DNA from: Komagataeibacter xylinus
Lineage (GTDB): Bacteria > Pseudomonadota > Alphaproteobacteria > Acetobacterales > Acetobacteraceae
Direction: 5' to 3'
Length of the DNA stretch: 64,000 bases
Assembly: GCF_004302915.1 (NCBI RefSeq)
Contig: NZ_QQBI01000005.1
Location: forward strand, 1-64,000
The notes under the pieces are model-generated. The model made no database searches and was not told the origin of the DNA. It was given only the letters and a program-made list of their open reading frames with translations. A program made the translations under genes and the position numbers. Positions 369-63,271 of this stretch are shown here, one piece after another; position 1 is the stretch's first letter, and each line of letters begins with the position of its first letter.

Positions 369-441
369 TTCGGGTGCCGCCTTTTTGCCGGAGGCGGCAC
401 TTCCTGAAGCTTTTTGCAAAAAGCTTCACCAAAAACTTTTC
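369..441 (+). repeat. Double-hairpin intergenic repeat, copy 1
   Basis: This copy carries a GCCGCCTTTTTG...GGCGGC hairpin and then a GAAGCTTTTTGCAAAAAGCTTC hairpin, which is followed by ACCAAAAACTTTT. It lies between the end of the glycine-rich gene and the end of hemH, which converge here. The T-rich flanks on both sides suggest a bidirectional terminator. Confidence 0.75.
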
Positions 442-464
442 TCCGTTAGCGGGCAGGAGAGACC

Positions 465-1520
465 TCAACCAGCAGAGGCTTCCGCTTTACGGGGCAGCCA
501 GCCTGCCAGTTCCTCGCGCACCAGGGTCTCGAGCAGGTTTATGGCATCGGGCGAGTTGTTCAGGCACGGAATCAGGGCCAGTTCCTTGCCGCCAGCCTTG
601 ATGAAGTCTTCCGCCGCCTCGTTGCCGATTTCATCAAGCGTTTCGATACAGTCGGAAATGAAGCCCGGCGTAATCACCGCAATGCGCTCGATGCCCTGCG
701 CGGGCAGCGACTCGATAAACGGCGCGGTATAGGGCTCCAGCCATTTTGCCGGCCCAAAGCGGGACTGGAAGGTGAGCGGCATCATGCGCTCGTCATACCC
801 CATGGCATGACGCAGCGCGGTGATGGTGCGCGCGCATTCATCGGCATAGCTGTCGCCCTTTTCCACATACACCCTGGGCAGGCCATGGAAGGAGGCGACA
901 ATCATCTGCGGCTTGAAATCCAGCGTTTCGAGCCGGGCCATGATCGAACGCCCGAGGGCCGCGATATAGGCCGGATGGTCGGGGAAGGCCGGCAGGGTGC
1001 GGATGGCAGGCTGGTTGCGCAGCCGCATCAGGGCGCGAAACGCCTGGTCATTGGCCGTGGCCGTGGTGGTGGCGCTGTATTGCGGGTAGAGCGGGGCAAG
1101 CAGGATGCGGTCGCACCCCTGTGCCACCAGCTCATGCAGCGCCTGCTTTATGGAGGGCTGGCCATAGCGCATGCCCCAGGCCACCGGCACATCGTCAGCC
1201 GCCAGCCTTTTTGCCAGCATTTCCGCCTGGTCGCGCGTATAGGTGCGCAGCGGGCTTTCATTACGGTCATGGTGCCAGATGCGGTGATAGGCCTCGCCCG
1301 ACTTGCGCGGGCGGAAGGTCAGCACCGGGCCATACAGGATCGGCTTCCAGACCAGGGGACTGGCTTCAATAATGCGCCGATCTGACAGGAATTCAGCCAG
1401 ATAGCGGCGCACCGCGCCATAGCCGGTGCCATCAGGGGTGCCAAGATTGCTCAGCAGTACCCCGGTGCGCGGCGGCGCATCTTCATGCCCCGCCGCGCGC
1501 TTTACGGTAATGAATGTCAT
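465..1520 (-). CDS. hemH: Ferrochelatase
   Basis: Ferrochelatase inserts ferrous iron into protoporphyrin IX, the last step of protoheme synthesis, and usually acts at the inner face of the membrane. The protein has the family N-terminus (GVLLSNLGTPDG) and the LAPLYPQYSATTT segment. The SFHGLP motif carries the metal-binding histidine (about residue 209), and the later acidic motif is ISDCIETLDEI. No C-terminal Fe-S cysteine cluster is seen. A TTG codon at 1556 could extend the frame by 12 residues, but I prefer the ATG at 1520, which gives 351 residues, the usual length. A small membrane-protein ORF lies just upstream on the same strand. Confidence 0.93.
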   Translation of the reverse strand: MTFITVKRAAGHEDAPPRTGVLLSNLGTPDGTGYGAVRRYLAEFLSDRRIIEASPLVWKPILYGPVLTFRPRKSGEAYHRIWHHDRNESPLRTYTRDQAEMLAKRLAADDVPVAWGMRYGQPSIKQALHELVAQGCDRILLAPLYPQYSATTTATANDQAFRALMRLRNQPAIRTLPAFPDHPAYIAALGRSIMARLETLDFKPQMIVASFHGLPRVYVEKGDSYADECARTITALRHAMGYDERMMPLTFQSRFGPAKWLEPYTAPFIESLPAQGIERIAVITPGFISDCIETLDEIGNEAAEDFIKAGGKELALIPCLNNSPDAINLLETLVREELAGWLPRKAEASAG

Positions 1521-1592
1521 GTTCCGGCTGCTACAGGAAGCCGGAGGTGGATGCAAAGGAACAGCGGACCCTCACCCTGCACAAGGGGCGCC

Positions 1593-3360: not shown

Positions 3361-3365
3361 AAAAA

Positions 3366-3438
3366 TGAAAGTTTTGGGCGCCGCCTTTTTTCAAAGCGCT
3401 TCGTAAAACGCCACCTTTTTGAAAAAAGGCGGCACCCG
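3366..3438. repeat. Double-hairpin intergenic repeat, copy 2 (hybrid)
   Basis: This copy starts like the forward form (AAAGTTTTGGGCGCCGCC) and ends like the reverse form (TTTTTGAAAAAAGGCGGCACCC). Both outer parts are therefore the GC stem, and the GAAGCTT stem is reduced to GCGCTTCGTAAAACG. It looks like a rearranged or recombined copy. It begins six bases after the DciA-like stop codon. Confidence 0.65.
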
Positions 3439-3632
3439 GGCAATTTTATTCTGCTGGAAGCAGCCCGGATGCGTCGCCCTGTTCCCAACATGAATCATGC
3501 TGTCATGAAAACGCCCTGTTCCAGGGGTTTCCTGACACGCAACATCACGGAACGGTGAGGTAGCGGGGCTGGATATCTGGCCGATCCGTGCCAATATCGG
3601 CTTTGCAATGGTACACAAAAGGAACCCGTCAG

Positions 3633-4507: not shown

Positions 4508-4561
4508 GTAAAGGTTTCTGGTGAAGCTTTTTTCAAAAAGCTTCGTAAAGACGCCGCCATT
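4508..4561 (-). repeat. Double-hairpin repeat, copy 3, interrupted by a MITE
   Basis: This is the first part of a reverse-oriented double hairpin (GGTTTCTGGTGAAGC, a GAAGCTT stem, then GACGCCGCCAT). It breaks off at 4561. What looks like the remainder (AAAAAGGCCGCACCAAAAAC-like sequence) resumes near 4729, after the element at 4565-4725. It is read as an older repeat split by a younger insertion. Confidence 0.55.
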
Positions 4562-4564
4562 TAA

Positions 4565-4725
4565 GAGGCTGTTGAAAACAACTCATTGATAAAAAATAAT
4601 AAAAGTTTTTGGGTGCCGCCTTTTTTCAAAAAGGCGGTGTTCTTTTAAGCTTTCTGAAAAAAGCTTCACCAAAAACTTCCTCATGATTCCTGGATATTTT
4701 CTGGGCTAACTTTTCAAACAGTCTC
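4565..4725 (+). mobile_element. 161-base MITE with terminal inverted repeats and TAA target duplication
   Basis: The left end reads GAGGCTGTTGAAAAC and the right end reads TTTTCAAACAGTCTC, which together form an imperfect terminal inverted repeat of about 15 bases. The element is flanked by TAA (4562-4564) and TAA (4726-4728). It has no coding capacity. Inside is a complete double-hairpin core (about 4605-4680). The sequence is closely similar, in reverse orientation, to the element at 48217-48378, including the arms outside the core. A 3-base TNA duplication is the pattern known for the IS1031 group of the IS5 family, described in Komagataeibacter. That parentage is an inference. Confidence 0.8.
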
Positions 4726-4749
4726 TAAAAAGGCCGCACCAAAACACAT

Positions 4750-5376: not shown

Positions 5377-5405
5377 TGTGGTCCTGCCGCCAATTTTAAG
5401 GTTCA

Positions 5406-5489
5406 AAAAGTTTTCAGGTGCCGCCTTTTTTCAAAAAAGGCGTTATTCTTTCAAAGCTTTTTGGAAAAAAGCTTCACCAGAAACTTTTT
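5406..5489 (+). repeat. Double-hairpin intergenic repeat, copy 5
   Basis: A full core: AAAAGTTTTCAGGTGCCGCC, a GC stem with TTTTTTCAAAAAA loop region, AAAGCTTTTTGGAAAAAAGCTT, then CACCAGAAACTTTTTT. It occupies almost the whole gap between pyrF and trpF and ends two bases from the pyrF stop. If it terminates transcription, it would attenuate trpF expression from a promoter upstream of pyrF. Confidence 0.8.
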
Positions 5490-5491
5490 TT

Positions 5492-7080: not shown

Positions 7081-7097
7081 TTAATTGATTAAAAACA

Positions 7098-7157
7098 GTA
7101 AAAGTTTCTGGGTATCGCCTTTTTTTCAAAAAGGCAGCGTTCTTCTGAAGCTTTTTC
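7098..7157 (+). repeat. Double-hairpin repeat, copy 6, 3'-truncated
   Basis: AAAGTTTCTGGGTATCGCC with the GC stem (TTTTTTTCAAAAAGGC), then the first arm GAAGCTTTTT, where homology stops at CCCTGCCC. Bases just upstream (ATTGATTAAAAACAGTA) match the MITE arm outside the core. This is probably a MITE remnant rather than a bare core. It starts close to the stop codon at 7078-7080. Confidence 0.65.
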
Positions 7158-10385: not shown

Positions 10386-10847
10386 GAAGGACCGGCCTGG
10401 CACGGGGCGGCCAGGCGCTTCAACATGACCTCGCCCATAAGGATAAGGCCGCCTGGCCGTCGGCCCTCATGTTCGTGCCATCGGCCGAAAGAGGCCATGC
10501 CCAGCGCAGGTGCCTGTCGTTCCTGAACCAACTGTAGACACTCGCGGGTGCAATTCTTTACCCAACGGATGAAACGCTGGGCAGACCATCAACATAACCT
10601 CTGCCCAACGCGGATATGCCGCCATTTCCTGCCATTCTGATACCGCCAGCGGGTCGCAGCCATCATGCGCCACGGATCAGGCAATAATATCGTGCCCCAA
10701 ATCAGAGGCTTCCAGAATGGCCTGTCTCATCAGTGAAAGCGGCCGGGGCGGCTCAATAAGGGGGCACAGACGCTGCCACAGGGATCATGCAGCTCCTGGC
10801 CGCGTACGTGGTGGCTTTGGCATCACGGCCTGCGTAACTGCAGAGGG
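10386..10847. other. 462-base gap with possible gene debris
   Basis: No convincing gene is present. On the minus strand there are short open pieces with protein-like composition. One example is a 35-codon stretch over about 10690-10795 that reads LWQRLCPLIEPPRPLSLMRQ and ends IIA-stop. A second, over 10467-10673, includes AVSEWQEMAAYPRWAEVML. Neither has a start with a ribosome-binding site, and they are in different frames. I read the gap as decayed remnants of one or more genes, perhaps a transposase, without evidence for which. Confidence 0.35.
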
Positions 10848-10970
10848 TCACGGCAGGGCACAGGTGAGCAGGCAGGTCCCGGCCGGGCGTGCAGCGGGGT
10901 GCAGGTCATTTGATGCGGCCAGGCCCGCCACGATCGCGGCGGTTGCCAGAATGAGCGAAAGCATGTGCAT
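10848..10970 (-). CDS. Small hydrophobic protein (40 aa)
   Basis: A 40-codon minus-strand frame with a strong ribosome-binding site (GGAGGAAAGGGTC immediately before the ATG at 10970). The product starts MHMLSLILATAAIVAGLAAS, a single hydrophobic segment that could be a membrane anchor or signal peptide, and ends with a short tail holding two Cys. Length and design match the 1593-1715 frame, whose leader is also AGGAAAGGG-like. It sits divergently upstream of tadA. The function is unknown, and it may be a small exported peptide. Confidence 0.5.
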   Translation of the reverse strand: MHMLSLILATAAIVAGLAASNDLHPAARPAGTCLLTCALP

Positions 10971-11177
10971 GACCCTTTCCTCCGCGTGTGGGATAACCAT
11001 GCGCCGATCCGCCGTGTGGCCGGTCGCGCGCGACCTGTCTGCATGAGGCAGGGCGGCTGTAACGCCCGGCCCGTAAACGGTTAACCACCAGGGCCGGACG
11101 CGGTTGCGCCCATCGCGGAAAAGTTGTGCCGCCGCGCGGGACTGGCCCGTGCCGGGGGGGCCGGGTATCATGCGGGC

Positions 11178-11639
11178 ATGACACGTCCGCTCCCGGCTTA
11201 TTTCATGGATATTGCGATGGCAGAGGCACGGGCCGCAGCACTGCGTGGCGAGGTGCCGGTGGGGGCCGCCCTTGCCGGACCACAGGGGCAGGTGCTCGCG
11301 CGCGCGGGCAACCGGGTGGAGGAATGGCATGATCCCTCCGCCCATGCCGAAATGCAGGTCATGCGCGCAGCGACCCGCCTGCGTGGCGGCCAGCGCCTGG
11401 CGGACTGCACGCTTTATGTCACGCTTGAGCCATGCCCCATGTGTGCGGCGGCGGCGGTGCATTTCCGTATCGGCCGGATTGTGTTCGGCGCCTATGATCC
11501 CAAGGGCGGGGGCGTGGAGCATGGCCCGCGGGTGTTTGCGCAAGCCCGCTGCCTGCACCGGCCCGAAACGGTGGGCGGCGTGCGCGAGCGCGAGGCCGGG
11601 GCGCTGCTACGGGATTTTTTTGCCCAAAGGCGCGCCTAA
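11178..11639 (+). CDS. tadA: tRNA-specific adenosine deaminase
   Basis: TadA deaminates A34 to inosine in tRNA-Arg(ACG) for wobble decoding. The zinc-dependent cytidine-deaminase fold is visible: HAEM with the proton-shuttling Glu near residue 56, and the zinc ligands in EPCPMCAAA near residue 85. The N-terminal helix (FMDIAMAEARAAALRGEVPVGA) and FGAYDPKGGGVEHG are also typical. The ATG at 11178 gives 153 residues, normal length. An upstream extension of the frame has no support. Confidence 0.92.
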   Translation: MTRPLPAYFMDIAMAEARAAALRGEVPVGAALAGPQGQVLARAGNRVEEWHDPSAHAEMQVMRAATRLRGGQRLADCTLYVTLEPCPMCAAAAVHFRIGRIVFGAYDPKGGGVEHGPRVFAQARCLHRPETVGGVREREAGALLRDFFAQRRA

Positions 11640-11761
11640 CCTATTTGTCATGCAACGGTATAACACGGGTCGGCTCTCTTGCGGCACAATGCAGGGAATG
11701 GGACTGTCATGCCCAGGCGGCCAGTCCCGCCCCGTTGTTTCGAGATTTCAGCAGGACCTCC

Positions 11762-13336
11762 ATGCTCAGGGATGCCATGTCAGACGTAGTACGGTCGAAC
11801 ACCCTTTCCTCCCGCCGGTTTCGCACGCGGTTGCTGGCCTCTCTGGTGGCCAGCGCGGTTACCGGGGCGGGACTGGCCTGCGCACCTGTGGCGCGGGCCG
11901 ATGAAACCGGGGTCATCCACCCCGATACCCAGATCCAGCAGCTGCCCAACTTCGTCAATCTGGTCAAGCAGGTCAAACCGGCGGTGGTCTCGATCACGGC
12001 CCGCATCAAGGATGCTGACACGGGCGAGGAAATGGGCGGCGGTGGCGGCATGCCGGGCGGCTTTCCGTTCCCGTTCCCTTTCCAGATGATGCCGCAGCAG
12101 GCGCACCGCACGGTTGAGGCGCGTGGCTCGGGCTTCGTCATCTCGCCCGATGGCTACGTCGTGACCAACAACCATGTGGTCAAGGGCGCCACCAAGGTCA
12201 CGGTCACGCTTGATGATGGCACGGCGCTGCCCGCCAAGATCGTGGGCCGCGATTCAAAGACCGATATCGCCCTGCTCAAGGTCTCGCCCTCGGGCAAGCT
12301 GCGCTTTATCGAACTTGGTGATTCCGACAAGGTCGAGCCGGGCGAATGGGTGGTGGCCGTGGGCAACCCGTACGGCCTTGGCGGCACGGTGACGGCGGGC
12401 ATCGTCTCCGCGCGCGGGCGTGATATTGGCGATGGGCCGTATGATTCCTTCATCCAGGTGGATGCACCCATCAACCGTGGCAACTCTGGCGGCCCGCTGT
12501 TCACGCAGGATGGCAAGGTGGTGGGGGTGAATACCGCCATCCTCTCGCCCTCGGGCGGGTCGATCGGCATTGGCTTCGCCATTCCGTCAGATACCGTAAA
12601 GAACATTGTCGAGCAGCTTGAAAAGACCGGCCATGTCACGCGCGGCTACCTGGGGGTGACTGCGCAGGAAATCACGCCGTCGATGGCCAGCGCGCTGGGC
12701 ATGAAGCCCTCGGCCACGGGGGCGCCGGCCACCGGGGCGCTGGTAGCCAGTGTGAGCGTGGGCAGCCCGGCCGAGAAAGCGGGCCTCAAGGCCGGTGACG
12801 TGGTGACCCAGCTCAATGGCCAGAACATCGATACGCCCCACACGCTGGCGGTCAATGTGGCCTCCATTACGCCGGGCACCAAGGCGTCGATTGCCTACCT
12901 GCGCAACAACAAGCCGCAGACGGCAACCGTGCTGATTTCAAGCCTGGGCAAGGGCAGCACGGCCGATGGCACGGTGGGCGACAGCACGCATGATACTGAC
13001 AAAGGCCCGAAACTCGGCGTAACCCTTGCACCCCTGACGCCTGACCTGCGCCAGCAGCTCGGACTGGAGGAAAGCGTGCGCGGCGTGGTGGTGAGCGACG
13101 TGCAACCCGGCTCGCCCGCCGAGCAGGCCGGTATCCATGCCGGTGACGTCATTCAGGCGGTGGGCGAAGTGCCGGTTGAAAACCCGCGCGCCACCGTCTC
13201 GGCCATAAGGCAGGCCTTCCAGGCCAATCACTCGGTGCTGCTGCGGGTGGTGCGCAACGGGCAGAGCGTGTTCGTGGCGGTCAGCCCCAATGCCGATGAT
13301 AACGATGCGGCGACGGATGATGACGACGATCAGTAA
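11762..13336 (+). CDS. DegP/MucD-type periplasmic serine protease (Do family)
   Basis: An HtrA-family protease-chaperone for envelope quality control. The signal segment (RTRLLASLVASAVTGAGLACA) is followed by the trypsin-like domain with His in TNNHVVKGA (about 137), Asp in SKTDIALLKV (about 167) and Ser in NRGNSGGPLF (about 242). Two PDZ domains follow (near 295-385 and 420-510). A Gly/Pro/Phe-rich Q-linker (GGGGMPGGFPFPFPF) sits before the protease core, and the C-terminus is a run of Asp. The start is ATG 11762 or 11777. A canonical terminator follows the gene. Confidence 0.9.
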   Translation: MLRDAMSDVVRSNTLSSRRFRTRLLASLVASAVTGAGLACAPVARADETGVIHPDTQIQQLPNFVNLVKQVKPAVVSITARIKDADTGEEMGGGGGMPGGFPFPFPFQMMPQQAHRTVEARGSGFVISPDGYVVTNNHVVKGATKVTVTLDDGTALPAKIVGRDSKTDIALLKVSPSGKLRFIELGDSDKVEPGEWVVAVGNPYGLGGTVTAGIVSARGRDIGDGPYDSFIQVDAPINRGNSGGPLFTQDGKVVGVNTAILSPSGGSIGIGFAIPSDTVKNIVEQLEKTGHVTRGYLGVTAQEITPSMASALGMKPSATGAPATGALVASVSVGSPAEKAGLKAGDVVTQLNGQNIDTPHTLAVNVASITPGTKASIAYLRNNKPQTATVLISSLGKGSTADGTVGDSTHDTDKGPKLGVTLAPLTPDLRQQLGLEESVRGVVVSDVQPGSPAEQAGIHAGDVIQAVGEVPVENPRATVSAIRQAFQANHSVLLRVVRNGQSVFVAVSPNADDNDAATDDDDDQ

Positions 13337-13366
13337 GATCGGGTGAACTGAACGGATTGGCATGAG

Positions 13367-13397
13367 GGCCGGGGCAGTTCTGTCCCGGCCTTTTTTG
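13367..13397 (+). terminator. Rho-independent terminator of the DegP-type gene
   Basis: A 10-base-pair GC stem (GGCCGGGGCA / TGTCCCGGCC, one G-U pair), four-base loop and six T residues lie 30 bases after the stop codon. It also marks the left limit of the AT-richer island. Confidence 0.85.
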
Positions 13398-13684
13398 TGT
13401 GGGGGCGGGGATGGAGCTGTGACTGTTTTTTGGGGGGGGAACGGAAGGTCTGCTATTAGGCACAAAATTTCAATAGTGAACGTTTTTATGATAAAGGTGT
13501 CCAGATTTTGACCTGAAGTCACCAGTTTTACATGATGAGGAAATGAGTTCCCGGCGTTGGCTAATCGCTCGTGGAAAAAGCCTCTACATCGTCTTGCAAA
13601 AGCTTATGACGCTTTCCATCTATATCTAGTTGCAACTTATATAGTGATATCGCAGTAATTTTTTCTCGGAGAGAAGAATATCTA
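13398..13684 (+). other. AT-rich leader of the 13.7 kb island
   Basis: This stretch is clearly richer in A+T than the surrounding chromosome and has no plausible gene. It ends with a good ribosome-binding site (CGGAGAGAAGA) nine bases before the ATG at 13685. TTGCAA and TATAT-like elements near 13590-13650 may hold the promoter for the two-gene cassette, but I cannot fix it. No attachment site or terminal repeat of an island is evident. Confidence 0.4.
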
Positions 13685-14770
13685 ATGGCTGATTTCTTTG
13701 AAATAGATTTATTAGGTGTCGAAACAAAAAAGAGTGGCGATGCAATAGCAATTCGCTATGAATTGGCAGGACAGACGACCATCCACGTTGTTGATGGGGG
13801 GTATACTACCAGTGGGGAGTGTCTTCGAGACCTCATCAACAAGTATTACGATAATCCGACATTCATCAATCGTGTGATCGCGACGCACAACGATGGGGAT
13901 CACGCACGTGGTCTAATCGCAATTCTCGAACATTTTGAGGTCGGTGAACTATGGATGCTCCGCCCGTGGGAGTATGCGGAAGAACTCATTGAGCATTTTA
14001 GTAATTATGAGAGTGTACCACACCTACGAGGCGCCCTGCGGCGTGCGTACGCTAACCTTGCAGCTCTTGAAGATATAGCGATTGACAAGGGCATTCCAAT
14101 CCATGAACCGTTCCAAGGGGCGCAGATCGGTGCATTCCACGTCATGGCCCCCTCGCGCGAGCGGTACCTCGACCTCATTTTAACGTCGAACAAAACGCCG
14201 GAAAGCTTGGGTATCGAATCCAGAGTCGACAGTATTTTGGGTACCATCATGGAGAAGGCGAAGACAGCAGTCGCGTTGCTCCGAGCATCATGGGGAGCGG
14301 AAGCCTTTCCGCCAGGAGATACGAGCAACGAAAATGAAATGAGTGTAGTCCAGTACGCTGTGCTGAATGGCAAGAAAATCCTGTTAACTGCTGATACGGG
14401 ACGAAAAGGTCTACAGGAGGTCATCGACTATGCACCATATGTCGGTTTGACCCTTCCGGGGATCGACAGATTCCAAGTTCCACACCATGGTGGGCGACAC
14501 AATGTTAATACGGATCTGCTAAACGCTATTGTAGGCCCGATTCTCCAGGAGCCGCAGGAGACCGGGCATTTTCAGGCCTATATCAGCTCAGCGAAGGCAG
14601 ATGAAGACCATCCCCGTAAGGTCGTACAACGCGCGCTTATCCATCGTGGTGCAAATCTTCACATGACCGAGGGCCAAAACATCCGTACGTCGGGTGGTGC
14701 CGCTCCGTCACGGCCAGATTACACGCCATTGGTGCCGACCGCATATCCCGATTCCTATGAGGAGGCTTGA
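13685..14770 (+). CDS. ComEC-type metallo-beta-lactamase fold hydrolase
   Basis: A 361-residue soluble protein with the metallo-beta-lactamase fold of the ComEC/Rec2 branch. The N-terminal strand pair ends in VVDGG (Asp37). The metal motif is THNDGDH (H68, D70, D72, H73), the H-x-D-x-D-H form seen in ComEC. ENEMSVVQY precedes the LLTADTG strand with the bridging Asp237. VPHHGG (His267) is the late metal ligand. Phosphodiester or nucleotide hydrolysis is the usual chemistry of this branch, but no substrate can be named. Codon use and base composition differ from neighbours, suggesting transfer. The stop codon overlaps the ribosome-binding region of the membrane gene that follows, so the two are coupled. 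Confidence 0.8.
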   Translation: MADFFEIDLLGVETKKSGDAIAIRYELAGQTTIHVVDGGYTTSGECLRDLINKYYDNPTFINRVIATHNDGDHARGLIAILEHFEVGELWMLRPWEYAEELIEHFSNYESVPHLRGALRRAYANLAALEDIAIDKGIPIHEPFQGAQIGAFHVMAPSRERYLDLILTSNKTPESLGIESRVDSILGTIMEKAKTAVALLRASWGAEAFPPGDTSNENEMSVVQYAVLNGKKILLTADTGRKGLQEVIDYAPYVGLTLPGIDRFQVPHHGGRHNVNTDLLNAIVGPILQEPQETGHFQAYISSAKADEDHPRKVVQRALIHRGANLHMTEGQNIRTSGGAAPSRPDYTPLVPTAYPDSYEEA

Positions 14771-14772
14771 CG

Positions 14773-15600
14773 GTGGCAATACCGATCCCGAACGGTATTG
14801 CACAGCTGTTCGATAGCTATGGTCGGCAGGCCAGACTGTTTCCTGCTCTTCTAATGATTTTTCCTCCCCTTCTTACCATACTGGCATGGTTCCCGTGGCT
14901 TCTGCTTTCCAGTGGCGGTGCGACACTTCTTACATTAGCGACATCATGCGGCCTTCTATACGCTCTTGGCTCGTATGCTCGCACCAAGGGTAAGCGGATT
15001 GAGCCAAAACTACTGAAGAGGTGGGGCGGATGGCCGACAACACTACTTTTGCGCCATGACAGCGAACTCGATCAGCATACCCGGCTGCGTTATCACACAT
15101 ATCTGGCGGGCGTAGTGCCCGAAAGTCTATCCTTCCCCACGGTTCAGGAAGAGCAAGCGAATCCCGCAGGCGCCAATGCGGTGTATGATTCAGCAGTACG
15201 GTGGTTGAAAGAAAGAACTCGAGGTAAAGAGTTTGCGATGGTGGAGCGCGAGAATGCGCAATACGGATTTCGTCGTAATTTGCTGGGCCTCAAGCCTTTC
15301 GCACTCACCCTTTGCCTCCTGACGTTGGTCATCACGATGCTCACAATTTTTAACAAAGCTCCTAATCTCGTGGATTCTATAAGAAATTGGGACTTTGTGG
15401 CGTTAGCAAAAGTAGCATCTGATCTTGGCCCCGCTATCCTAGCGACATTTGCGGTCAATCTGTTTGCCATGCTTGCGTGGGTTTTTGTCGTGACCAAGCG
15501 CTGGGTTCGGGAAGCCGGATTCCAGTATGCCTACGCTCTACTCGCCGTGTGCGATATGACAACCAACGCGACGAATAAGAAAAGGAAAAAGGCTGTTTAG
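14773..15600 (+). CDS. Four-segment membrane protein partner of the MBL hydrolase
   Basis: A 275-residue protein of unknown family. Two hydrophobic segments near the N-terminus (about residues 22-67), a cytoplasmic-looking middle, and two more segments near 177-195 and 215-240 are visible, with a basic end (KKRKKAV). The middle holds a conserved-looking patch (KRWGGWPTTLLLRHDSELD, then RLRYHTYL). I chose the GTG at 14773, seven bases after AGGAGG. A TTG at 14767 is possible but too close to that site. Spacing to the MBL gene implies a stable pair: a soluble hydrolase with a membrane partner. A defence or stress role is a guess from this architecture. Confidence 0.65.
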   Translation: MAIPIPNGIAQLFDSYGRQARLFPALLMIFPPLLTILAWFPWLLLSSGGATLLTLATSCGLLYALGSYARTKGKRIEPKLLKRWGGWPTTLLLRHDSELDQHTRLRYHTYLAGVVPESLSFPTVQEEQANPAGANAVYDSAVRWLKERTRGKEFAMVERENAQYGFRRNLLGLKPFALTLCLLTLVITMLTIFNKAPNLVDSIRNWDFVALAKVASDLGPAILATFAVNLFAMLAWVFVVTKRWVREAGFQYAYALLAVCDMTTNATNKKRKKAV

Positions 15601-15689
15601 TGGACAAGGATCAGATCTATCTGCCAGCAGACATGCTGCCGCGTCCCTTCCGATGCGAGGTCAATATGCGCAATGCGGGTTTTCTATAG
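15600..15689 (+). pseudogene. Stub of a third coupled gene
   Basis: A GTG codon overlaps the stop of the membrane gene (TAGTG), 10-20 bases after the purine-rich AAGGAAAAAGG. The frame runs 29 codons (MDKDQIYLPADMLPRPFRCE then VNMRNAGFL) to TAG at 15687-15689. Start position, overlap and ribosome-binding site are those of a translationally coupled third gene. The early stop and loss of coding character afterwards suggest truncation or a frameshift. The product is too short to identify. Confidence 0.45.
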
Positions 15690-15838
15690 CACGCCTATAT
15701 GCGGAATGGATCGTTACACAGCCTAACCCCGCACGGGAACTTTGTACCAATCATGTCCGCTTTACGGAAAACAATTTAGCGGCTCGTATGACCAAAATGA
15801 GGCGACTACCGCCCACCCGGTTTCATAACCGGGCACCA

Positions 15839-17338
15839 TCAATGTCTTTCAATTCCATCATAAGTCCTGACGTTTTGACTGCCTGCCATATTCTTCAGGG
15901 CCATGTCGATGTCCGCCCAGTTCCCACATTTCGCAGCGGCAGCGACATAGCCATCGGGTCGTATCAGCCAGATACCGTTTTCATCCGGTGGCAGGCATGG
16001 TTCGGGCATCAGCAGGGCTGGATGGCGTGCGATCATGGCCCGCGCTGCAGCGCTGTTCCTGGCCGCAAGCACAAAGCGGGGCGGCATGTTGTCCTGTCCG
16101 GAACATGGCCATGAAACCAGTCGCTGCCCTGGCCCAGGGCCACGCAGCCCCCGGGCTGAACCCATGTTGAGGGGGCTGTCCGGGTAGCCGATCAGGATTC
16201 CGGAAAGCCGATTGGCAATGGCACGACGGACCACCGGAATGCGAAAGCCCTGCTTTACAATGAAGTTGCGCACCCTCTGCGCCAGATGGCTTCTGAGCAG
16301 GACAATTCTGGTCATGCGGCTGGAATCCGACAGGATCTGCCGTGCAACACCGCTGCGTTCGCTACTGTAGCTGTCCAGCAGGCGCGGGCTGGCGTCCTGC
16401 CGCTCGACCAGTGCCAGCTTCCACGCAAGATTGAAGGCATCCTGCATGCCCATGTTCATGCCCTGACCACCGGCAGGGCTATGGATATGGGCCGCATCGC
16501 CAGCCAGGAACACGCGGCCCCTGCGGTAGTCCCTGACCCTGCGTTCATTAACCCCGAAATCCGACAGCCACACCGGATCGGACAGGATGACCCCGCCCGG
16601 TCCGCGCCGGTCAACAAGTGCCTGTATTTCCCCAAGGTCAGGCCTATGCAATGCAACCGGCCCCAGATCGGCGATGATACGGTAATGGCCCCGCGATATT
16701 GGAAAGAACATGACAGCGCCGTCGGGGTGCCAGAAAATTGCCGGTTCGTCGGGCGGGATCGCAAGGCCCGCCACGTGCACGTCAGCAATGACAAAACCCA
16801 TGGGCAGCGTGTCCCCCGCGAATGCCAGGCCCAGCGTGCTGCGCACAAGGGAATGCGCCCCATCGCACCCGATGAGCCACGCTGCTTCCACGGTCTCGAT
16901 CCTGCCGCCCGCATGCCTGAGCGTGCAGGACACACCGTCGTCCCTGCCAGTAAAGTCGGTCAGTTCGGTCCCGCGTTCGACAGTATGGCCAAAAGTCCCG
17001 AGATGGTCTTCCAGTAACCGCTCGGTTTCCGATTGCGCAATCATCAGCAGGTAATTGAAGGATGAGGCGATCGTGCCGAACGGGATCCGGGCCAGTGTCG
17101 TGTTGCCGGCATGAATGCTCACGGCATCCGCACGCAGCCCGGTGGCCATAAACGCATCGGCACAGCCCGCTGCATCAAGCAGTTCCAGTGTCCGGGGCCA
17201 GATGGCCAGGGCGCGGGACTGGGTGGTGCGGGCTGGCAGCCTGTCAATAACCCTGACAGGCGTGCCGTAGCGGGCCAGTTCGGCGGCCATGATCAGGCCG
17301 ACAGGCCCCGCACCGCTAACAAGGACGGGCTTCGACAT
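15839..17338 (-). CDS. FAD-dependent monooxygenase (class A aromatic hydroxylase type)
   Basis: A 499-residue flavoprotein of the p-hydroxybenzoate hydroxylase / pentachlorophenol monooxygenase type, using NAD(P)H and oxygen. The dinucleotide-binding [17 protein letters not shown] lies at the N-terminus. [14 protein letters not shown] is the DG motif, and [19 protein letters not shown] is the GD motif contacting the FAD ribityl chain. [15 protein letters not shown] follows. The ATG at 17338 places the Rossmann motif at residue 9, as is usual. The open frame upstream to 17650 is an artefact. The C-terminal thioredoxin-like tail is weakly matched. The substrate is unknown, and the gene stands alone beside the island. 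Confidence 0.85.
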
Positions 17339-17567
17339 GGTTTTATCCAAAGGAAAGGACGTGTCAGGCCATATGAACGGATGCCACCACGTTAACGCCG
17401 GACGCAGCCGGACTGTTCCTGCCTGCTCCCGGGCAGGCAGGCGGTTGTGGCACGGAAAAAGGGGCGGCTTTCCCCCCGTTTCCTTAAAAAAACGGCCCAC
17501 CCTGATTGTCGTGGCAGGGTTTCTTGCCGTATCTGCACGCATTGCATGTTCGTTTCCGGAGGGGATG

Positions 17568-18485
17568 ATGACCGGTCCAGCACTATCCGATGCCCAGGGG
17601 TCGTCTCGCGCGCGCCTGATTGATGGCAAGGGTTTCGCCGCCCGCCTCACTCAGGATATCGCAGCCGATGTCAGCGCCTTTTATGAAAAGCACCACGTCA
17701 CCCCCGGCCTCGCCGTGGTGCTGGTGGGCAATGACCCCGCAAGCGAGGTCTATGTGCGTAACAAGGCGCTCCAGACCCACCGCGCGGGCATGCGTTCGTT
17801 CATGCACATGCTGCCCGCCACCACCGCGCAGAACGAACTGCTCAGCCTGATCGCACGGCTCAATGTCGATCCCGAGATCCATGGCATCCTCGTGCAGCTG
17901 CCCCTGCCTGCGGGGCTCGACCCCGTGGCCGTGACCAACGCCATCGCGCCCGAAAAGGACGTGGACGGGCTGGGCGTGGTCAATGCTGGCCGGCTGGCGC
18001 TGGGGCTGCCAGGCATCGTGCCGTGCACGCCGCTGGGCTGCCTGCTACTGCTGCGCCATTACGTGGGCGACATGCGTGGCAAGGATGCGCTGGTAATTGG
18101 TGCCTCGAACCTCGTTGGCCGCCCCATGGCCGAACTGCTGCTGCAGGAGGGCTGCACCGTTACCGTGGCGCATGTCGACACGCGCGATACGGCGGCCCTG
18201 GCCCGTCAGGCCGATATCGTGGTGGTGGCGACCGGCGTGCGCGAACTGGTGCGCGGCGACTGGATCAAGCCCGGTGCCACGGTGATTGATGTCGGCATTT
18301 CGCGCGTTACGCTGCCTTCGGGCAAGACGCGGCTGGTGGGCGACGTGAAGTTTGACGAGGCCGTTGAGCGCGCTGGCCTGATTACGCCCGTGCCCGGCGG
18401 CGTGGGGCCAATGACCATTGCCTGCCTGCTGCGCAACACCCTTGATGCGGCCCGCCAGATCGTGACGGGGCAGGCACGCTCATGA
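17568..18485 (+). CDS. folD: Methylenetetrahydrofolate dehydrogenase / methenyltetrahydrofolate cyclohydrolase
   Basis: FolD interconverts 5,10-methylene-, methenyl- and 10-formyl-tetrahydrofolate with NADP. Seen: [15 protein letters not shown] with the catalytic Lys region, [37 protein letters not shown], the NADP-binding [16 protein letters not shown], and VGDVKFDE followed by [19 protein letters not shown]. The ATG at 17568 lies five bases after GGAGG, and an adjacent ATG at 17565 is possible. The product is 305 residues. Its TGA overlaps the ATG of the MetF-like gene, forming a one-carbon operon. Confidence 0.94.
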
Positions 18486-19234
18486 CCCTGACCTCCGTTG
18501 AACTGATCCCGCGGGATGCGGAAACCCTGCTGCGTGACGCCAATGAAGTCGCCCGGCTGTTCCCCGATGCGGGGATGATCAATATCCCCGACCTGCTGCG
18601 CTTTCCGCTGCGCAGCTGGGAGGCGGCGCGGCTGGTGCGCCCGGTTTTCGCGCGCGTGGTGCCGCATATCCGCGCCATTGACATTGCGCCTGACGCGCCC
18701 CTGCCGGGCGCGGATGATCCGGGCCTGCGCGAGGTGCTGGTGGTCAAGGGCGACCCGCCATCGGACCTGCGCCACCGCACCTACCCCAACAGCAGCGAGA
18801 GCGTGATCGCGCGTTATCGCCGCGAGGCGCCGCATCTGGATGTCTATGCCGCGTTCGACCCGTATCGCCGCGCACCGTATCTGGAAATGGAAGCCATCGC
18901 GCGCAAGAAGGAAGCCGGTGCCATCGGCTTCTTCACCCAGCCCATATTCGACCTGCCCATGCTGGATCTGTGCATGAACTGGCTGCATGGGGAAAATGTG
19001 TTCTGGGGCATCTCGCCCGTGGTAGGGCCAAAATCGCGCTCATATTGGGAGACGACGAACCACGTCATCTTCCCCCACGGGTTTGAGCCAACATTCGAGG
19101 CCAATATCACCTTTGCCCGGCAGATGATGGAGGTCGTGGCCCGCGCGGGCGGCAACACCTACCTCATGCCGCTGCGCGTCAACCTTGAGCGCTACCTGAC
19201 GCCGCTGCGGCGTGATCAGGGCGTTTCAGACTAG
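18482..19234 (+). CDS. MetF-like methylenetetrahydrofolate reductase family protein
   Basis: A 250-residue protein of the methylenetetrahydrofolate reductase fold, shorter than classic MetF (about 290). Recognisable pieces are [26 protein letters not shown], the YRREAP...YAAFDPYR segment, and [16 protein letters not shown], which matches the family's G(A)xxxxTQ(P)xF strand. VFWGISPVV occupies the position of the usual GI.P. The start overlaps the folD stop (ATGA). This supports a role in folate one-carbon transfer, probably reduction to methyl-THF for methionine synthesis. Whether it has full MetF activity is uncertain. Confidence 0.75.
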
Positions 19235-19250
19235 AATATTGATAAAAGGA

Positions 19251-19332
19251 AAAAGTTCTTGGTGAAGCTTTTTTCAAAAAACTCCGAAGAACGCCGCCTT
19301 CTTGGAAAAAAGGCGGCACCCAAAAACTTTTT
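19251..19332 (-). repeat. Double-hairpin intergenic repeat, copy 7
   Basis: Reverse orientation: AAAAGTTCTTGGTGAAGC, a GAAGCTT-type stem, ACGCCGCC, then the GC stem ending GGCGGCACC and CAAAAACTTTTT. Upstream ATTGATAAAAGG resembles the MITE arm. It sits between the convergent ends of the MetF-like and Nudix genes and probably terminates both. Confidence 0.78.
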
Positions 19333-19355
19333 CAGGGTTCACGCCACCCAGGTGT

Positions 19356-19931
19356 TCAGATCCAGCCACGCGCCCGGATCAGGCCAAATGCCGCAATCGT
19401 GACCATGCAGGTGATCCGCCCGTCCAGGATCATCGCCTCCATCTCGGACAGGGGAACGGTGTGGCAGGTAATGTCCTCCTCCGTTTCCTCGCGCTGGTGG
19501 CTGCCCTGCGTCAGCCCGGTGGCCAGGAAGGCGCGGCCCTTCTGGGTGGTGTAGCCAGCGCCCTGGTACAGCAGCCCCGCATCGCGCATCTCGGCGGCCA
19601 TGAGGCCGGTTTCCTCGCGGAGTTCGCCACGCGCCACCTCATCGGGTGTTGCGTCGGGGCGGTTTTCCCACATGCCCATGGGCAGTTCCCACATCCGCTT
19701 TTGTATGGGATAGCGGTATTGGCGGATCAGGGTGACGCGGGGGCCCTCGGGGCTTTCCCACAAGGGCAGGATCACGACAAAATCACCGCGCTCCACCACG
19801 CCATACAGCCCCTCGCGGCCATTGGGGCGCAGGATGATGTCCTCGCGCACGCGGGTCCAGGGGTTTTCGTAGGCCGTGCGGGTGGAAAGCGTGGTGTAGC
19901 CGCCTGCATCGGGGGTGGGGCGTTGCGTCAT
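19356..19931 (-). CDS. Nudix hydrolase (ADP-ribose pyrophosphatase-like)
   Basis: A 191-residue Nudix enzyme that hydrolyses a nucleoside diphosphate linked to another moiety. The Nudix helix is PMGMWENRPDATPDEVARGE then LREETGL, with the catalytic/metal REEXG core present. Upstream VTLIRQYRYPIQKRMWELPMG is typical of ADP-ribose or GDP-sugar pyrophosphatases (NudF/NudK group). The ATG at 19931 is preceded by AAGGAGACAGG, an excellent site. The longer frame to 20036 has no such support. The substrate cannot be fixed. Confidence 0.85.
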   Translation of the reverse strand: MTQRPTPDAGGYTTLSTRTAYENPWTRVREDIILRPNGREGLYGVVERGDFVVILPLWESPEGPRVTLIRQYRYPIQKRMWELPMGMWENRPDATPDEVARGELREETGLMAAEMRDAGLLYQGAGYTTQKGRAFLATGLTQGSHQREETEEDITCHTVPLSEMEAMILDGRITCMVTIAAFGLIRARGWI

Positions 19932-42917: not shown

Positions 42918-42920
42918 ATA

Positions 42921-44655: not shown

Positions 44656-45492
44656 ATGCATCCCTCCAAGTCCTCTGTGTGCATGATTATCAAAAATGAA
44701 GAAGCCCACATCAAGGAATGGGTCTGCTACCACAAGGCACTGGGATTCGATACAATCATTATACTTGATAACAATTCAACTGATAATACCCGCCCTGAAA
44801 TTGAAAAACTCGGCAGGTTCATGGATGTCAGATACCATTCATGGGAAAAGGAGGACTTCTTTTATCAGATAGATGCTTATAATTTCTGTATTTCGACCTA
44901 TCGTGAGGAATTCAGATGGATGGCTTTCATTGATTCCGATGAATTTATCGTTCCAAAAAACGACGAGAATATAAACGATTTTCTTGAAAAATATGATGCG
45001 TATGATGCCCTGGTTCTCAACTGGGCCATGTTCGGGTCATCAGGCCATATCAATGCGCCCGAAGGATTGATGATGGAATCCTTCACCAGAAGATCGGATG
45101 AAAATTTTTACAATACCCGCCATGTCAAAACCATTCTGAACCCCAAAAAAACAAAACACTGCATCAATCCTCATGTTTTTGAAATTGATGGCAGGAGCAT
45201 CAATGTCCTGCATCGTGAACCGACATGGGAAAAGCCGGGCATAGTCAATCATGGGCCTATCTATGATGAATGCCAGATCAATCATTATTATACCAGAAGC
45301 CAGAGCGAGTGGATTCGTAAAATAAAACGCGGGTATCCCGACATGGATACATCAGCATTTGACAATGACAAGATCATGGAAGGTTTCCGCTATGCTGACC
45401 TGAATGATGTTGTCGATGTATCAGCCCTGCGTTTTTTAAAACGGACAAAAGAAATCATTTCCGCAGTCAATCTTTTATCCAGCCTGTCATGA
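44656..45492 (+). CDS. Glycosyltransferase family 2 / GT92-like protein
   Basis: A 278-residue soluble glycosyltransferase. CMIIKNEEAHIKEWVCYHKALGFD and IIILDNNSTDNT are the start of the GT-A nucleotide-sugar domain. WMAFIDSDEFI holds the DxD-type motif (DSDEF). The pattern of K-E-W...Y-H...G and the late NHYYTRSQSEWIRKIKRG matches the Glyco_tranf_2_4/GT92 group, often cell-surface glycan enzymes. The gene is much richer in A+T than the chromosome, suggesting acquisition. No other polysaccharide gene is adjacent. Donor and acceptor are unknown. Confidence 0.8.
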   Translation: MHPSKSSVCMIIKNEEAHIKEWVCYHKALGFDTIIILDNNSTDNTRPEIEKLGRFMDVRYHSWEKEDFFYQIDAYNFCISTYREEFRWMAFIDSDEFIVPKNDENINDFLEKYDAYDALVLNWAMFGSSGHINAPEGLMMESFTRRSDENFYNTRHVKTILNPKKTKHCINPHVFEIDGRSINVLHREPTWEKPGIVNHGPIYDECQINHYYTRSQSEWIRKIKRGYPDMDTSAFDNDKIMEGFRYADLNDVVDVSALRFLKRTKEIISAVNLLSSLS

Positions 45493-45527
45493 GCGGGCAG
45501 GGCGTGCACCGCATACCTTTCAGAAAA

Positions 45528-45575
45528 GCGGCCGTTTTCAAAGCTTTTTGAAAAAAGCTTTGCCAAAAACTTTTT
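45528..45575 (-). repeat. Partial double-hairpin repeat, copy 10
   Basis: Only the GAAGCTT-type stem (AAAGCTTTTTGAAAAAAGCTTT) and the outer flank GCCAAAAACTTTTTT remain, preceded by GCGGCCG. It lies 36 bases after the glycosyltransferase stop. A TTTTCAGACAG string at about 45668 may be a decayed MITE end. Confidence 0.55.
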
Positions 45576-45800
45576 TAATTACAGTTACTTATGAAGTCTT
45601 CACCCCGAAAGATCGCCCTCATGACTTCACATGAGCGGTCCCCTCCATCCTGCCTCAGACTCAACTTTTCAGACAGGTATTCATATCATGCTTGCAAAAA
45701 GCAATCATAACCAGATCTTTAAATAAATATTATTCATTGGAGCATATTCTGCACATTCCAGAAGAAAATATTCCAGCCATCCCAATTCAGGAGCATGAAT

Positions 45801-48216: not shown

Positions 48217-48378
48217 GAGACTGTCTGAAAAGTCAGCCCCACAGACATCCAGAAATCATAAGAAAGTTTTTGGTGAAGCTTTTTTCAAAAAGCTTCGAAG
48301 AACACCGCCTTTTTGAAAAAAGGCAGCACCCAAAAACTTTTATCATTTTTTATCAATGAGCTGTTTTCAAACAGTCTC
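48217..48378 (-). mobile_element. 162-base MITE inserted at the stop codon of the barrel-protein gene
   Basis: The ends are GAGACTGTCTGAAAAG and TTTTCAAACAGTCTC. The flanks are TTA at 48214-48216 and TTA at 48379-48381, the second being the complement of the TAA stop of the barrel-protein gene. It is colinear in reverse with the 4565-4725 element, including the arm that reads CTCATTGATAAAAAATGATA on the minus strand. The double-hairpin core is at about 48263-48343. It has no coding capacity. It should also terminate the adjoining gene. Confidence 0.85.
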
Positions 48379-53164: not shown

Positions 53165-53283
53165 ACAGTCTGCAGGCCGTTTCACAGGCAATTTTCCGGA
53201 ACGCTCCCTGCAATGACAATCTGGCCCAATCGTTCATCTGCCTGTATGGAACAGGCCTCCAGAAAGCTTAAGGGAGAGGCAAC

Positions 53284-61684: not shown

Positions 61685-61748
61685 CCCTGCGGGGGAACCG
61701 GGCCGATACGGATGAATTATAACAACAAGGAAAGGAAAAGGCACCCGC

Positions 61749-63227
61749 ATGAACACCCAGTCCCCCCCACCCCAGAACACCCAGCAACCAACCGAACCGC
61801 TACCCGATCTGTCCCAGATCGAGATTTCACCCAACGCGCGCAAGACCCTGTGGCTCGCAGCCATCGTGGCCGCAATCTGTGGCGGCCTCTATGGTTACGA
61901 TACCGGCATCGTGTCGGGCGCGCTCTTGCTCATTACCAAGGACTTCCATCTCAGCAGCTTCCTGCAGGAGATGGTGGCCTCCGCCATTCTCGCGGGTGCC
62001 GTGCTCGGCTCGCTGCTCACCGGCTGGCTGTCGGAGCATTATGGCCGGCGCAAATCGGTCATGATCGTCACGGCGGTGTTCGTGCTTGGCGCGCTGGCCT
62101 GCGCGTTTTCACCCGATGTCTATACGCTCATCGCGGCGCGCGTGTTCCTCGGGCTTGCAGTCGGCGGCTCCACGCAGGTGGTGCCGATGTACATCTCGGA
62201 ACTCGCCCCCGCGCACAAGCGCGGCCACATGGTCACGATGTTCAACATCGCCATCGGCATCGGCATCTTTGCCGCCAACATCATAGGCTTTGCCGCGCGT
62301 GATGCGTGGGGCTGGCGGCCGATGGTGGCCATTGCGGCCATTCCGGCGGCGGGCGTGTTCATCTCCATGTTCTTCCTGCCCAAGAGCCCGCGCTGGGCGG
62401 CGGAGCATGAAAGCCTGGATTCCGCCCTTGAGCAGCTCCAGCGCATCCGCACCTCCGAGCGCGAGATCCGCCGCGAGATGCGCCGCATCCACGCCAACGC
62501 CAATGAAGAGACCGACCCGCGCGACATCGGCTGGCGCGGCATCCGCCAGCCCTGGGTGCGCCCCGCACTCGTGGCCGCCCTTGGCGTCGCGTTCTTCACG
62601 CAGGCAGGCGGGCTGGAGATGATGATCTACTACGCGCCGACCTTCCTGTCGGATGCGGGGTTTGGCAGCTCATCGGCGCTGATGGCCAGCATCGGCATTT
62701 CCATCATCTACCTGGTCATGACCGTGCTGGGCTCGAACATTGTCGACCGCATCGGCCGCCGCCGCCTTGTGCTGGTCATGGGGCCGGGCAGCGTGCTGAG
62801 CCTGATCGGGCTGGGCATCATGTTCCTCGCCCACCCGCAGCCGGGCAGCATGGGCAGCTGGCTGATCATTGTGTTCATGCTGCTGTTCATGGTGTTCAAC
62901 GCCGGTGGCATTCAGGTGGTGGGCTGGCTGCTCGGTGCCGAGATGTTCCCGCTCTCCATGCGCGGCAACGCCACCAGCCTGCATTCGGCCATGCTGTGGG
63001 GCAGTGACCTGCTGGTCACCAGCACGGCACTCACGCTGGTCACCAAGATCACGCTGGGGGGCACCATGTGGTTCTATGCCGGGGTGAACCTGCTTTCGGT
63101 GCTGTTCGTGTATTTCATGGTGCCTGAAACACGCGGCGCCTCGCTTGAGGATATCGAGGAGGCCCTGCGTGAAGGGCGCTTCCGCCCCACGCGCGGCAAC
63201 ACCGCGATCGTGGAGGAAGAAGAATAA
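61749..63227 (+). CDS. Sugar-porter MFS transporter
   Basis: A 492-residue, 12-span carrier, paralogous to the one at 55582-56997. A Pro/Gln-rich cytoplasmic N-terminus (QSPPPQNTQQPTE) precedes TM1 with GGLYGYDTGIVSGALL. GWLSEHYGRRKSVM is motif A. FLGLAVGGSTQVVPMYISELAP has the sugar-porter signature, and MVPETRGASLEDIE is PETR. The QQxxGxN motif is replaced by FFTQAGGLEMMIYYAP, so specificity may differ from GalP. It starts 64 bases after selO on the same strand, with AAGGAAAGGAAAAGG upstream. A hairpin repeat touches the stop. Confidence 0.88.
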   Translation: MNTQSPPPQNTQQPTEPLPDLSQIEISPNARKTLWLAAIVAAICGGLYGYDTGIVSGALLLITKDFHLSSFLQEMVASAILAGAVLGSLLTGWLSEHYGRRKSVMIVTAVFVLGALACAFSPDVYTLIAARVFLGLAVGGSTQVVPMYISELAPAHKRGHMVTMFNIAIGIGIFAANIIGFAARDAWGWRPMVAIAAIPAAGVFISMFFLPKSPRWAAEHESLDSALEQLQRIRTSEREIRREMRRIHANANEETDPRDIGWRGIRQPWVRPALVAALGVAFFTQAGGLEMMIYYAPTFLSDAGFGSSSALMASIGISIIYLVMTVLGSNIVDRIGRRRLVLVMGPGSVLSLIGLGIMFLAHPQPGSMGSWLIIVFMLLFMVFNAGGIQVVGWLLGAEMFPLSMRGNATSLHSAMLWGSDLLVTSTALTLVTKITLGGTMWFYAGVNLLSVLFVYFMVPETRGASLEDIEEALREGRFRPTRGNTAIVEEEE

Positions 63228-63271
63228 AAGTTTGTTTCTGGGTGCCGCCTTTTTTCAAAAAGGCGGCATTC
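63226..63271 (+). repeat. Partial double-hairpin repeat, copy 15
   Basis: Only the first stem is present: AAAAGTTTGTTTCTGGGTGCC, GCCGCCTTTTTTCAAAAAGGCGGC, ATTCTGCC. It starts at the stop codon of the MFS gene and lies four bases before the S9 peptidase stop, so it probably ends both convergent transcripts. Confidence 0.68.

What the first reader, a model, noticed from the sequence alone, without database searches (positions are those of the whole stretch)
369..63271. A family of about 15 double-hairpin repeats between genes
The same roughly 80-base design recurs at about 369, 3366, 4508, 4605, 5406, 7098, 19251, 22161, 42841, 45528, 48263, 53084, 55502, 58430 and 63226. Its parts are an outer stem AAGTTTTTGG/CCAAAAACTT, a GCCGCC-T6-CAAAAAGGCGGC hairpin and a GAAGCTTTTT-GAAAAAAGCTTC hairpin. 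Both orientations occur. All copies are intergenic, and most start or end within about 40 bases of a stop codon. The pairings are kept although sequences differ, which suggests selection on structure or transposition. They would fold into a three-way junction and act as terminators.
Basis: partly seen in the sequence, partly recalled or inferred. Interest (0 to 1): 0.75.

Follow-up and report, generated by a model that had tools for sequence, protein, structure and literature searches.

The report
Spreading double-hairpin repeat at gene ends
A short DNA element that folds into two hairpins sits just behind the stop codons of many genes in acetic-acid-type bacteria, is kept in shape while its letters change between genera, and in this lineage has been spread to hundreds of places, at least partly by riding inside a tiny transposon.

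Summary
The 15 repeats are real. In 1.26 Mb of this genome I found 155 copies: 84 between convergent genes, 64 tandem, 3 divergent; 77 of 98 convergent gaps of 60-500 bp hold one. Some are the middle of a 161-165 bp IS5-type MITE with TNA duplication; copy 4605 has clean empty sites in two relatives. The MITE end often abuts a TAA stop codon. Most recognisable copies lost the MITE ends but kept the core. In genus g79 three sites are shared by five of five species, cores 95-97% identical against 89% for flanking DNA, interior inverted between species. Other genera carry the design with different, still-pairing stem letters. Among window copies alone covariation does not exceed chance. Terminator function is not shown: scans miss most copies and mismatches show no RNA-strand bias. 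Best reading: an orientation-independent 3'-boundary element (termination or RNA 3'-end protection) amplified here by a MITE. Rivals: a DNA-level BIME-like role, or a selfish MITE in a safe haven.

The parts
358..442 (+). double-hairpin copy, left outer arm weak; 3' of hemH, convergent
   Evidence: R1 73.3 bits; same site occupied in close species
3365..3451 (-). copy with rearranged first half, just after the stop of the DciA/DUF721 gene
   Evidence: R1 47.9 bits; site occupied in several relatives
4508..4564 (-). older copy, first part, interrupted by the MITE
4565..4725 (+). 161-bp MITE (ends GAGGCTGTTGAAAA / TTTTCAAACAGTCTC) inserted in the hairpin of copy 4508; TAA at 4562-4564 and 4726-4728
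   Evidence: clean empty site in L108 and L106; TIR at 4711-4725
4597..4682 (+). double-hairpin core inside that MITE
   Evidence: R1 96.7 bits
4729..4750 (-). remaining end of copy 4508 behind the MITE (limits read by eye)
   Evidence: sequence
5402..5490 (+). copy between pyrF stop and trpF start
   Evidence: R1 82.5 bits; empty in G005, G002
7096..7157 (+). truncated copy
   Evidence: R1 39.1 bits; fuller copies in relatives
19249..19335 (-). complete copy, convergent
   Evidence: R1 97.6 bits
22156..22246 (+). complete copy, convergent
   Evidence: R1 79.7 bits
42835..42918 (+). complete copy between an alcohol dehydrogenase gene and rho, convergent
   Evidence: R1 69 bits; genes; opposite orientation in G002, G008
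45487..45576 (+). degenerate copy, second hairpin kept
   Evidence: R1 27.4 bits
48217..48378 (-). 162-bp MITE with TTA on both sides
48260..48345 (-). core inside that MITE
   Evidence: R1 104.2 bits
53079..53165 (+). complete copy between trpA and an accD-like gene; same site and orientation in six of six relatives
   Evidence: R1 99.9 bits
55497..55586 (-). complete copy, convergent
   Evidence: R1 91.2 bits
58424..58509 (-). complete copy with MITE remnant on one side
   Evidence: R1 100.9 bits; empty in G005
63226..63299 (+). truncated copy, first hairpin kept (63241-63267)
   Evidence: R1 35.1 bits

Best explanation
What it is (well supported): an 80-90 bp intergenic element of the Acetobacteraceae made of an outer inverted repeat (AAAAGTTTTTGG/CCAAAAACTTTT) that encloses two hairpins whose inner stems end in T-runs and A-runs. 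Where it sits in this genus (shown): directly behind stop codons, above all between convergent genes, almost never between divergent starts. How it spread in this lineage (shown for some copies, inferred for the rest): it is the middle of a 161-165 bp MITE with IS5-type ends that inserts at TNA, often exactly at a TAA stop codon, which the target duplication rebuilds; the ends then erode and the core stays. What it does (inferred): it marks the 3' boundary of transcripts read from either side, as a stop for polymerase and/or a hairpin that blocks 3' exonucleases. Because both hairpins are palindromes the element should work in either orientation, which fits the inversions seen between species. 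The exact biochemical step is not shown.
For: Context in 1.255 Mb of G000: 84 convergent, 64 tandem, 3 divergent, 3 edge, 1 in a called gene, of 155; by intergenic bp p=2e-31 for convergent excess and 8e-19 for divergent lack. 77 of 98 convergent gaps of 60-500 bp occupied, 1 of 131 divergent; in six relatives 40/60 convergent, 41/194 tandem, 0/77 divergent. T[AT]A sites do not explain it: 788 of 2669 lie in divergent gaps. Near-full tandem copies start a median of about 20 nt after the upstream stop (39 copies). MITE: TIRs, TSD and empty sites; of 25 TIR ends preceded by TAA, 12 are in-frame stop codons against 6.8% of intergenic TAA (p). Probe profile 5-13 (ends) against 57-109 (core), with a dip at the unpaired linker. 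g79: three sites in five of five species, core identity 0.95-0.97 (gaps left out) against 0.89 for flanking mostly coding DNA, interior flipped at all three sites (orientations by reading). Family scale: stems GCCGCC, TCCGCC, GTCGCC, GTGGCCCC, GAAGC, GCAGC, GTTC, CTTC, CTCCC, each with its complement; 25 distinct arm pairs 91% paired against 57% shuffled, 0 of 2000.
Against: Few copies look like canonical intrinsic terminators. In tandem copies mismatched pairs show no RNA-sense bias (G-U 95, A-C 98, p=0.89), so RNA-level selection is not visible in this genome. Genome-scale double changes (44) exceed shuffles (24 +- 4) but not the slid structures (34-45). Convergent gaps with a copy have fewer other terminators (15 of 77 against 14 of 22), but the difference vanishes when free length is matched (12 of 39 against 12 of 33). 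In close relatives the core is not more conserved than the rest of the same gap (0.87-0.92 against 0.86-0.92). Young, TIR-bearing copies are already concentrated at 3' ends (48 entries, some elements counted at both ends: 25 convergent, 9 tandem, 1 divergent, 13 edge), which insertion bias plus purifying selection could explain. In several other genera the few best copies read are mostly tandem, not convergent (g45 0 of 4, g74 0 of 4 with 2 divergent, g104 0 of 2, one g92 species 0 of 4 convergent). The family-wide copies were found with a model that rewards pairing, an ascertainment bias.
Confidence: 0.5

Rival explanations
1. A selfish MITE family and nothing more: it targets TNA at stop codons and gene ends, copies elsewhere are purged, and the core is only what has not yet decayed.
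For: TIR, TSD and empty sites; young copies already at 3' ends; no RNA-strand bias of mismatches; core not more conserved than the rest of the gap in close relatives.
Against: Equal-length probes find the core roughly ten times as often as the ends, and bare cores include the top-scoring ones. In g79 three copies, with no MITE ends in the 220-nt stretches shown, are kept in five species. Stem letters change in pairs between genera.
Confidence: 0.23
2. A DNA-level element, like BIMEs that bind gyrase (recalled): the inverted repeats with AT-rich tips extrude or are bound by a topology protein between convergent genes.
For: Preference for convergent gaps in this genus, orientation independence and inversion, T-runs and A-runs kept when stem letters change, no G-U over A-C bias.
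Against: No binding protein or DNA motif identified here; copies also follow single tandem genes within about 20 nt of the stop, which suggests a link to the transcript.
Confidence: 0.2
3. Bare cores are a second, independently mobile element, and the MITE only captured one.
For: 55 of 82 anchored copies show no MITE flank on either side; at the pyrF site the bare core lies between TGA and TGAACC as a 3-bp duplication would predict.
Against: No excess of direct repeats around 82 anchored cores; flank clusters point to one vehicle only.
Confidence: 0.1

Closest known systems
REP/BIME elements (GTAG- and CGTC-tagged palindromes; PMC3733652, passages read)
   Same: Short, high-copy, hairpin-forming, mostly between convergent and unidirectional genes, placed behind coding regions.
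   Different: No GTAG or CGTC tag at the stem base in the consensus, two different hairpins inside a third inverted repeat, no Y1 (RAYT-type) transposase gene found in this genome. The paper states that CGTC repeats are missing in Acetobacteraceae.
MITEs of the IS5 family (IS1031-like group and its TNA target are recalled)
   Same: 161-165 bp, terminal inverted repeats, 3-bp TNA duplication, too short to code for a transposase; an 883-bp DUF4096 IS in G012 has ends GAGCCTGTTTGGAAAA and GAGCCTGTTTGAAAAA (L229).
   Different: Carries a conserved double hairpin that outlives the ends; no autonomous element with the exact ends was seen in the loci read.
BOX and RUP repeats of pneumococcus (PMC3049150, search listing with start of abstract only)
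   Same: Small interspersed repeats in bacterial chromosomes.
   Different: No relation tested; different family and host.
Intrinsic terminators
   Same: Strong stem-loops just behind stop codons; outer arm ends in CTTTT on both strands in the consensus.
   Different: No GC-rich hairpin directly followed by a T-run in most copies.

Membership tests
MITE (IS5-type) | terminal inverted repeats | tested here: met
   TIRs at both ends 161-165 bp apart in five distinct pairs and further pairs
MITE (IS5-type) | target duplication of fixed length and empty sites | tested here: met
   TTA on both sides in 4 of 5 pairs, CAA/TAA in the fifth; clean empty site in two relatives
MITE (IS5-type) | mobilised by a cognate full-length IS | tested here: inconclusive
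   2 of 30 DUF4096 loci read have end pairs within 3 mismatches; the best (L229) has TAA and TTA beside it, not a clean duplication
MITE (IS5-type) | holds for all copies of the family | tested here: not met
   55 of 82 anchored copies show no MITE flank; none seen in the stretches shown for g79
REP/BIME | GTAG or CGTC at the foot of the palindrome | tested here: not met
   consensus of 155 copies has neither
REP/BIME | RAYT transposase in the genome | tested here: not met
   PF01797: 0 matches in G000, 5 of 14 control genomes ring; draft assembly
REP/BIME | location behind genes, convergent or tandem | tested here: met
   148 of 155
Intrinsic terminator | GC-rich hairpin followed by a T-run | tested here: not met
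   fires on 52 of 155 on one strand, 0 on both
Intrinsic terminator | ends transcripts in vivo | not testable with these tools
   no RNA data
Any Rfam family | score at or above the gathering cut-off | tested here: not met
   only two tRNAs in the window; in 8 related loci all listed matches lie below cut-off

The most novel reading that the evidence does not exclude
A family-wide, structure-conserved and orientation-independent 3'-end module of Acetobacteraceae: pairing and A/T-runs are kept while the stem letters are exchanged wholesale between genera, the interior flips in place between its outer arms, and in one lineage a stop-codon-seeking MITE turned it into a self-spreading gene-end module that now occupies most convergent gene pairs.
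Probability: 0.45. Interest if true: 0.78.

Novelty: new variant of a known kind. Interest (0 to 1): 0.64.

Why it matters
It links three things usually seen apart: a mobile element, a conserved structured module, and the layout of gene ends. If the 3'-boundary role holds, a transposon has supplied the ends of a large share of convergent gene pairs in a genus, and comparison of filled, empty and flipped sites across species makes the effect of a gene-end element directly testable. It also offers compact orientation-independent candidate parts for engineering acetic acid bacteria.

Tried and rejected
Covariation in the window alone: no excess over shuffles. Autonomous IS with the exact TIR: the one exact TIR pair at IS-like spacing that I noticed in the list (G014 C52, 1046 bp) is two MITEs flanking a small gene; I did not read every listed TIR. 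RAYT: none in the own genome. Independent mobility of bare cores: no direct-repeat excess. A second vehicle: one flank cluster of 33, the rest pairs that look like coding coincidences. Complementary use of classical terminators: signal lost after length matching. RNA-level selection through G-U against A-C: none. A purely T[AT]A-driven location: not enough. Dropped rows: locus L338 (G121) looked like a chance hit and was left out. The right-hand probes use one variant of a flank that has at least one other variant, so that side is undercounted; the left flank is shared. Literature: paper searches listed nothing that describes this repeat (listings only; most were narrow, and the held library is open-access only). 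Passages were read in PMC3733652, PMC4686929, PMC12306157 and PMC4666352.
Full report
Observation. Ten align over the whole design, five are damaged. The consensus is an outer inverted repeat AAAAGTTTTTGG/CCAAAAACTTTT, a GCCGCC-T6-A5-GGCGGC hairpin, a short linker, and a GAAGC-T5-A6-GCTTC hairpin. The first hairpin occurs 139 times in the 3.63-Mb draft genome with up to three mismatches and never when read backwards. A covariance model from the ten copies gives a match for 150 of the 150 candidates scored, out of 2176 first-look candidates, so 150 is a floor. A sequence-only profile finds 155 non-overlapping copies, whole or partial, in 1.255 Mb. If even, that would be about 450 per genome (inference).

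Position. With a simple gene caller on that 1.255 Mb (1111 genes), 84 copies lie between convergent genes, 64 between tandem genes, 3 between divergent genes, 3 at edges and 1 over a called gene. Convergent gaps make up only 22.5 of 153.5 kb. 77 of 98 convergent gaps of 60-500 bp hold a copy, 58 of 360 tandem gaps, 1 of 131 divergent gaps. In about 750 kb of six relatives the figures are 40 of 60, 41 of 194 and 0 of 77. The 39 near-full tandem copies begin a median of about 20 nt behind the upstream stop codon; orientation relative to the gene is not clearly biased (24 same, 15 opposite). The distribution of T[AT]A sites does not explain this, since divergent gaps hold 788 of 2669 of them.

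Vehicle. Copy 4605 lies inside a 161-bp segment with ends GAGGCTGTTGAAAA and TTTTCAAACAGTCTC, flanked by TAA, in the hairpin of the older copy 4508. Two close species (L108, L106) have the uninterrupted older copy; a third (L104) is uninterrupted but shortened. Full-length elements of 161-165 bp with the same ends occur elsewhere in this and other species and, at 91% identity, on plasmids of Novacetimonas hansenii and Komagataeibacter nataicola. Of 57 distinct TIR ends, 13 directly abut an in-frame stop codon. Among the 25 preceded by TAA, 12 are stop codons, against 6.8% of all intergenic TAA (p=2e-8) or a rough 18% that I estimated by hand for convergent gaps (p=6e-4). The two ends of one element count separately here. 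The duplication rebuilds the stop codon. I saw no autonomous element with these exact ends; an 883-bp IS with a DUF4096 transposase in G012 has similar ends.

Core outlives vehicle. Equal-length probes along the mini-transposon find 5-13 copies of the ends but 57-109 of the core, with a dip at the unpaired linker, intermediate counts (25-82) across the borders and 0-1 hits for shuffled probes. Of 82 copies with both core ends recognised, 55 show no MITE flank at all, 21 on one side and 6 on both; the flankless ones include the best-scoring core. Cores carry no direct-repeat excess and no second kind of flank. Per-column conservation is 0.91 in the hairpin stems, 0.84-0.88 in the outer arms and 0.69 in the linker.

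Comparison between species. Against three close species, shared sites give 27 copies in the same orientation, 2 opposite (one of them the nested 4605) and 3 absent. Against G005: 6 same, 1 opposite, 5 absent. Against G002: 3 sites same, 6 opposite, 8 absent; against G008: 4 same, 5 opposite, 5 absent. At one of the opposite sites G005 is empty, so parallel insertion is likely there. One site, between trpA and an accD-like gene, is shared in the same orientation by six of six relatives. Core identity in the distant relatives is 0.84-0.88 where fourfold sites are 0.62-0.64, but the alignable rest of the gap is about as conserved (0.82-0.90), and unrelated copies within the genome are already 0.80 identical. 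In the close relatives core and rest of gap are alike. These tests alone do not prove constraint on the core.

The clearest case is genus g79. Each of the five species searched has only three or four copies. Three sites are shared by all five, a fourth by two. Core identity is 0.95, 0.97 and 0.95 with gaps left out, against 0.89 for the flanking, mostly coding DNA; by eye the differences cluster in the linker, which at the second site is 16 nt longer in two species. No MITE ends are seen in the stretches shown. Read by eye, the interior is inverted between species at all three sites; at the third the immediate flanks are alike in both orientations, which fits inversion in place between the outer arms. 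The G000 orthologs found for several of those genes have no copy within 250 nt.

Family scale. Of 397 genomes of the family, 82 have a match at E <= 0.001, in 23 of 102 genera (at most 11 candidates scored per genome, strict filters; many matches are weak, and strong ones below 1e-20 occur in g1, g97, g55, g79, one g86 and one g92 genome). None of 24 genomes from other families of the class matched. Reading copies from six further genera shows the same plan with other stem letters: GTTC and CTCCC, CTTC, GTGGCCCC, GTGGGGGC, GCCGCCC and GCAGC, each opposite its complement, while the outer arms and the T-runs and A-runs stay. Some copies have one hairpin decayed, and one locus (L338) was a chance hit. 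Among 25 distinct arm pairs from 61 hairpins, 91% of positions pair, against 57% when arms are dealt out anew (0 of 2000). These loci were chosen by a model that rewards pairing, so the figure is biased upward; the number in single genomes (118 matches counting both strands in G062) speaks against chance. Stop-to-core distances there are mostly under 30 nt, but the few copies read are mostly tandem in g45, g74, g104 and one g92 species, with two divergent in g74. Within this genome the covariation is modest: 44 double changes against 24 +- 4 in shuffles and 34-45 in slid structures, pairing 88.5% against 87.6 +- 0.2 shuffled and 47-64% slid.

Function. Placement behind stop codons on both strands, symmetry and conservation of structure point to a boundary element for transcripts from either side. 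Against a plain terminator: few copies meet hairpin-plus-T-run criteria, and in tandem copies the RNA sense shows as many A-C as G-U mismatches (98 and 95), so RNA-level selection is not visible here. Hairpin protection of RNA 3' ends needs no T-run and remains possible; so does a DNA-level role. I put the boundary role at one half.

Known kinds. It works most like REP/BIME elements in placement, but fails their tag and RAYT tests. Its vehicle is a MITE by TIR, duplication and empty site. No Rfam family matches at its cut-off. The searched open-access papers listed no description of it. I therefore file it as a new variant of a known kind.

Noticed in passing
window 53208-53283: The stretch just upstream of the accD-like gene is nearly identical in seven species although fourfold sites to three of them are only 0.62-0.64 identical; a possible conserved leader. 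It does not fold better than shuffles and has no Rfam match at a cut-off.
   Followed up: partly
window 10400-26800: No long syntenic match in six relatives while both sides are syntenic; a tRNA lies at 22025-22098. Possibly a genomic island.
   Followed up: no
L124, roughly 13-14 kb in (ortholog of G000:C57:69178 in G018; place estimated): Outer-arm remnant without the interior, as if the hairpins were deleted between the arms.
   Followed up: no
G000 flanks e102, e103, e104: A separate repeat of about 110 bp, 68% alike between two of its copies, next to some double-hairpin copies.
   Followed up: no
G000:C57 about 104600-104700: A conserved stretch containing TTGGACTAATCCAA (with small changes) upstream of a gene in four species.
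   Followed up: no
window 42835-42918: The copy lies at the 3' end of the gene for transcription termination factor Rho (Pfam Rho domains), beside a classical terminator-like hairpin.
   Followed up: partly
G005 genome: 47 exact TIR 15-mers, the most of the 19 genomes searched (next 24 in G014), suggesting recent activity of the mini-transposon.
   Followed up: no
155-copy alignment of G000: In the element's own sense hairpin 1 has more G-U than A-C mismatches (93 against 47), the outer arms the reverse (47 against 114), irrespective of gene direction; unexplained.
   Followed up: no
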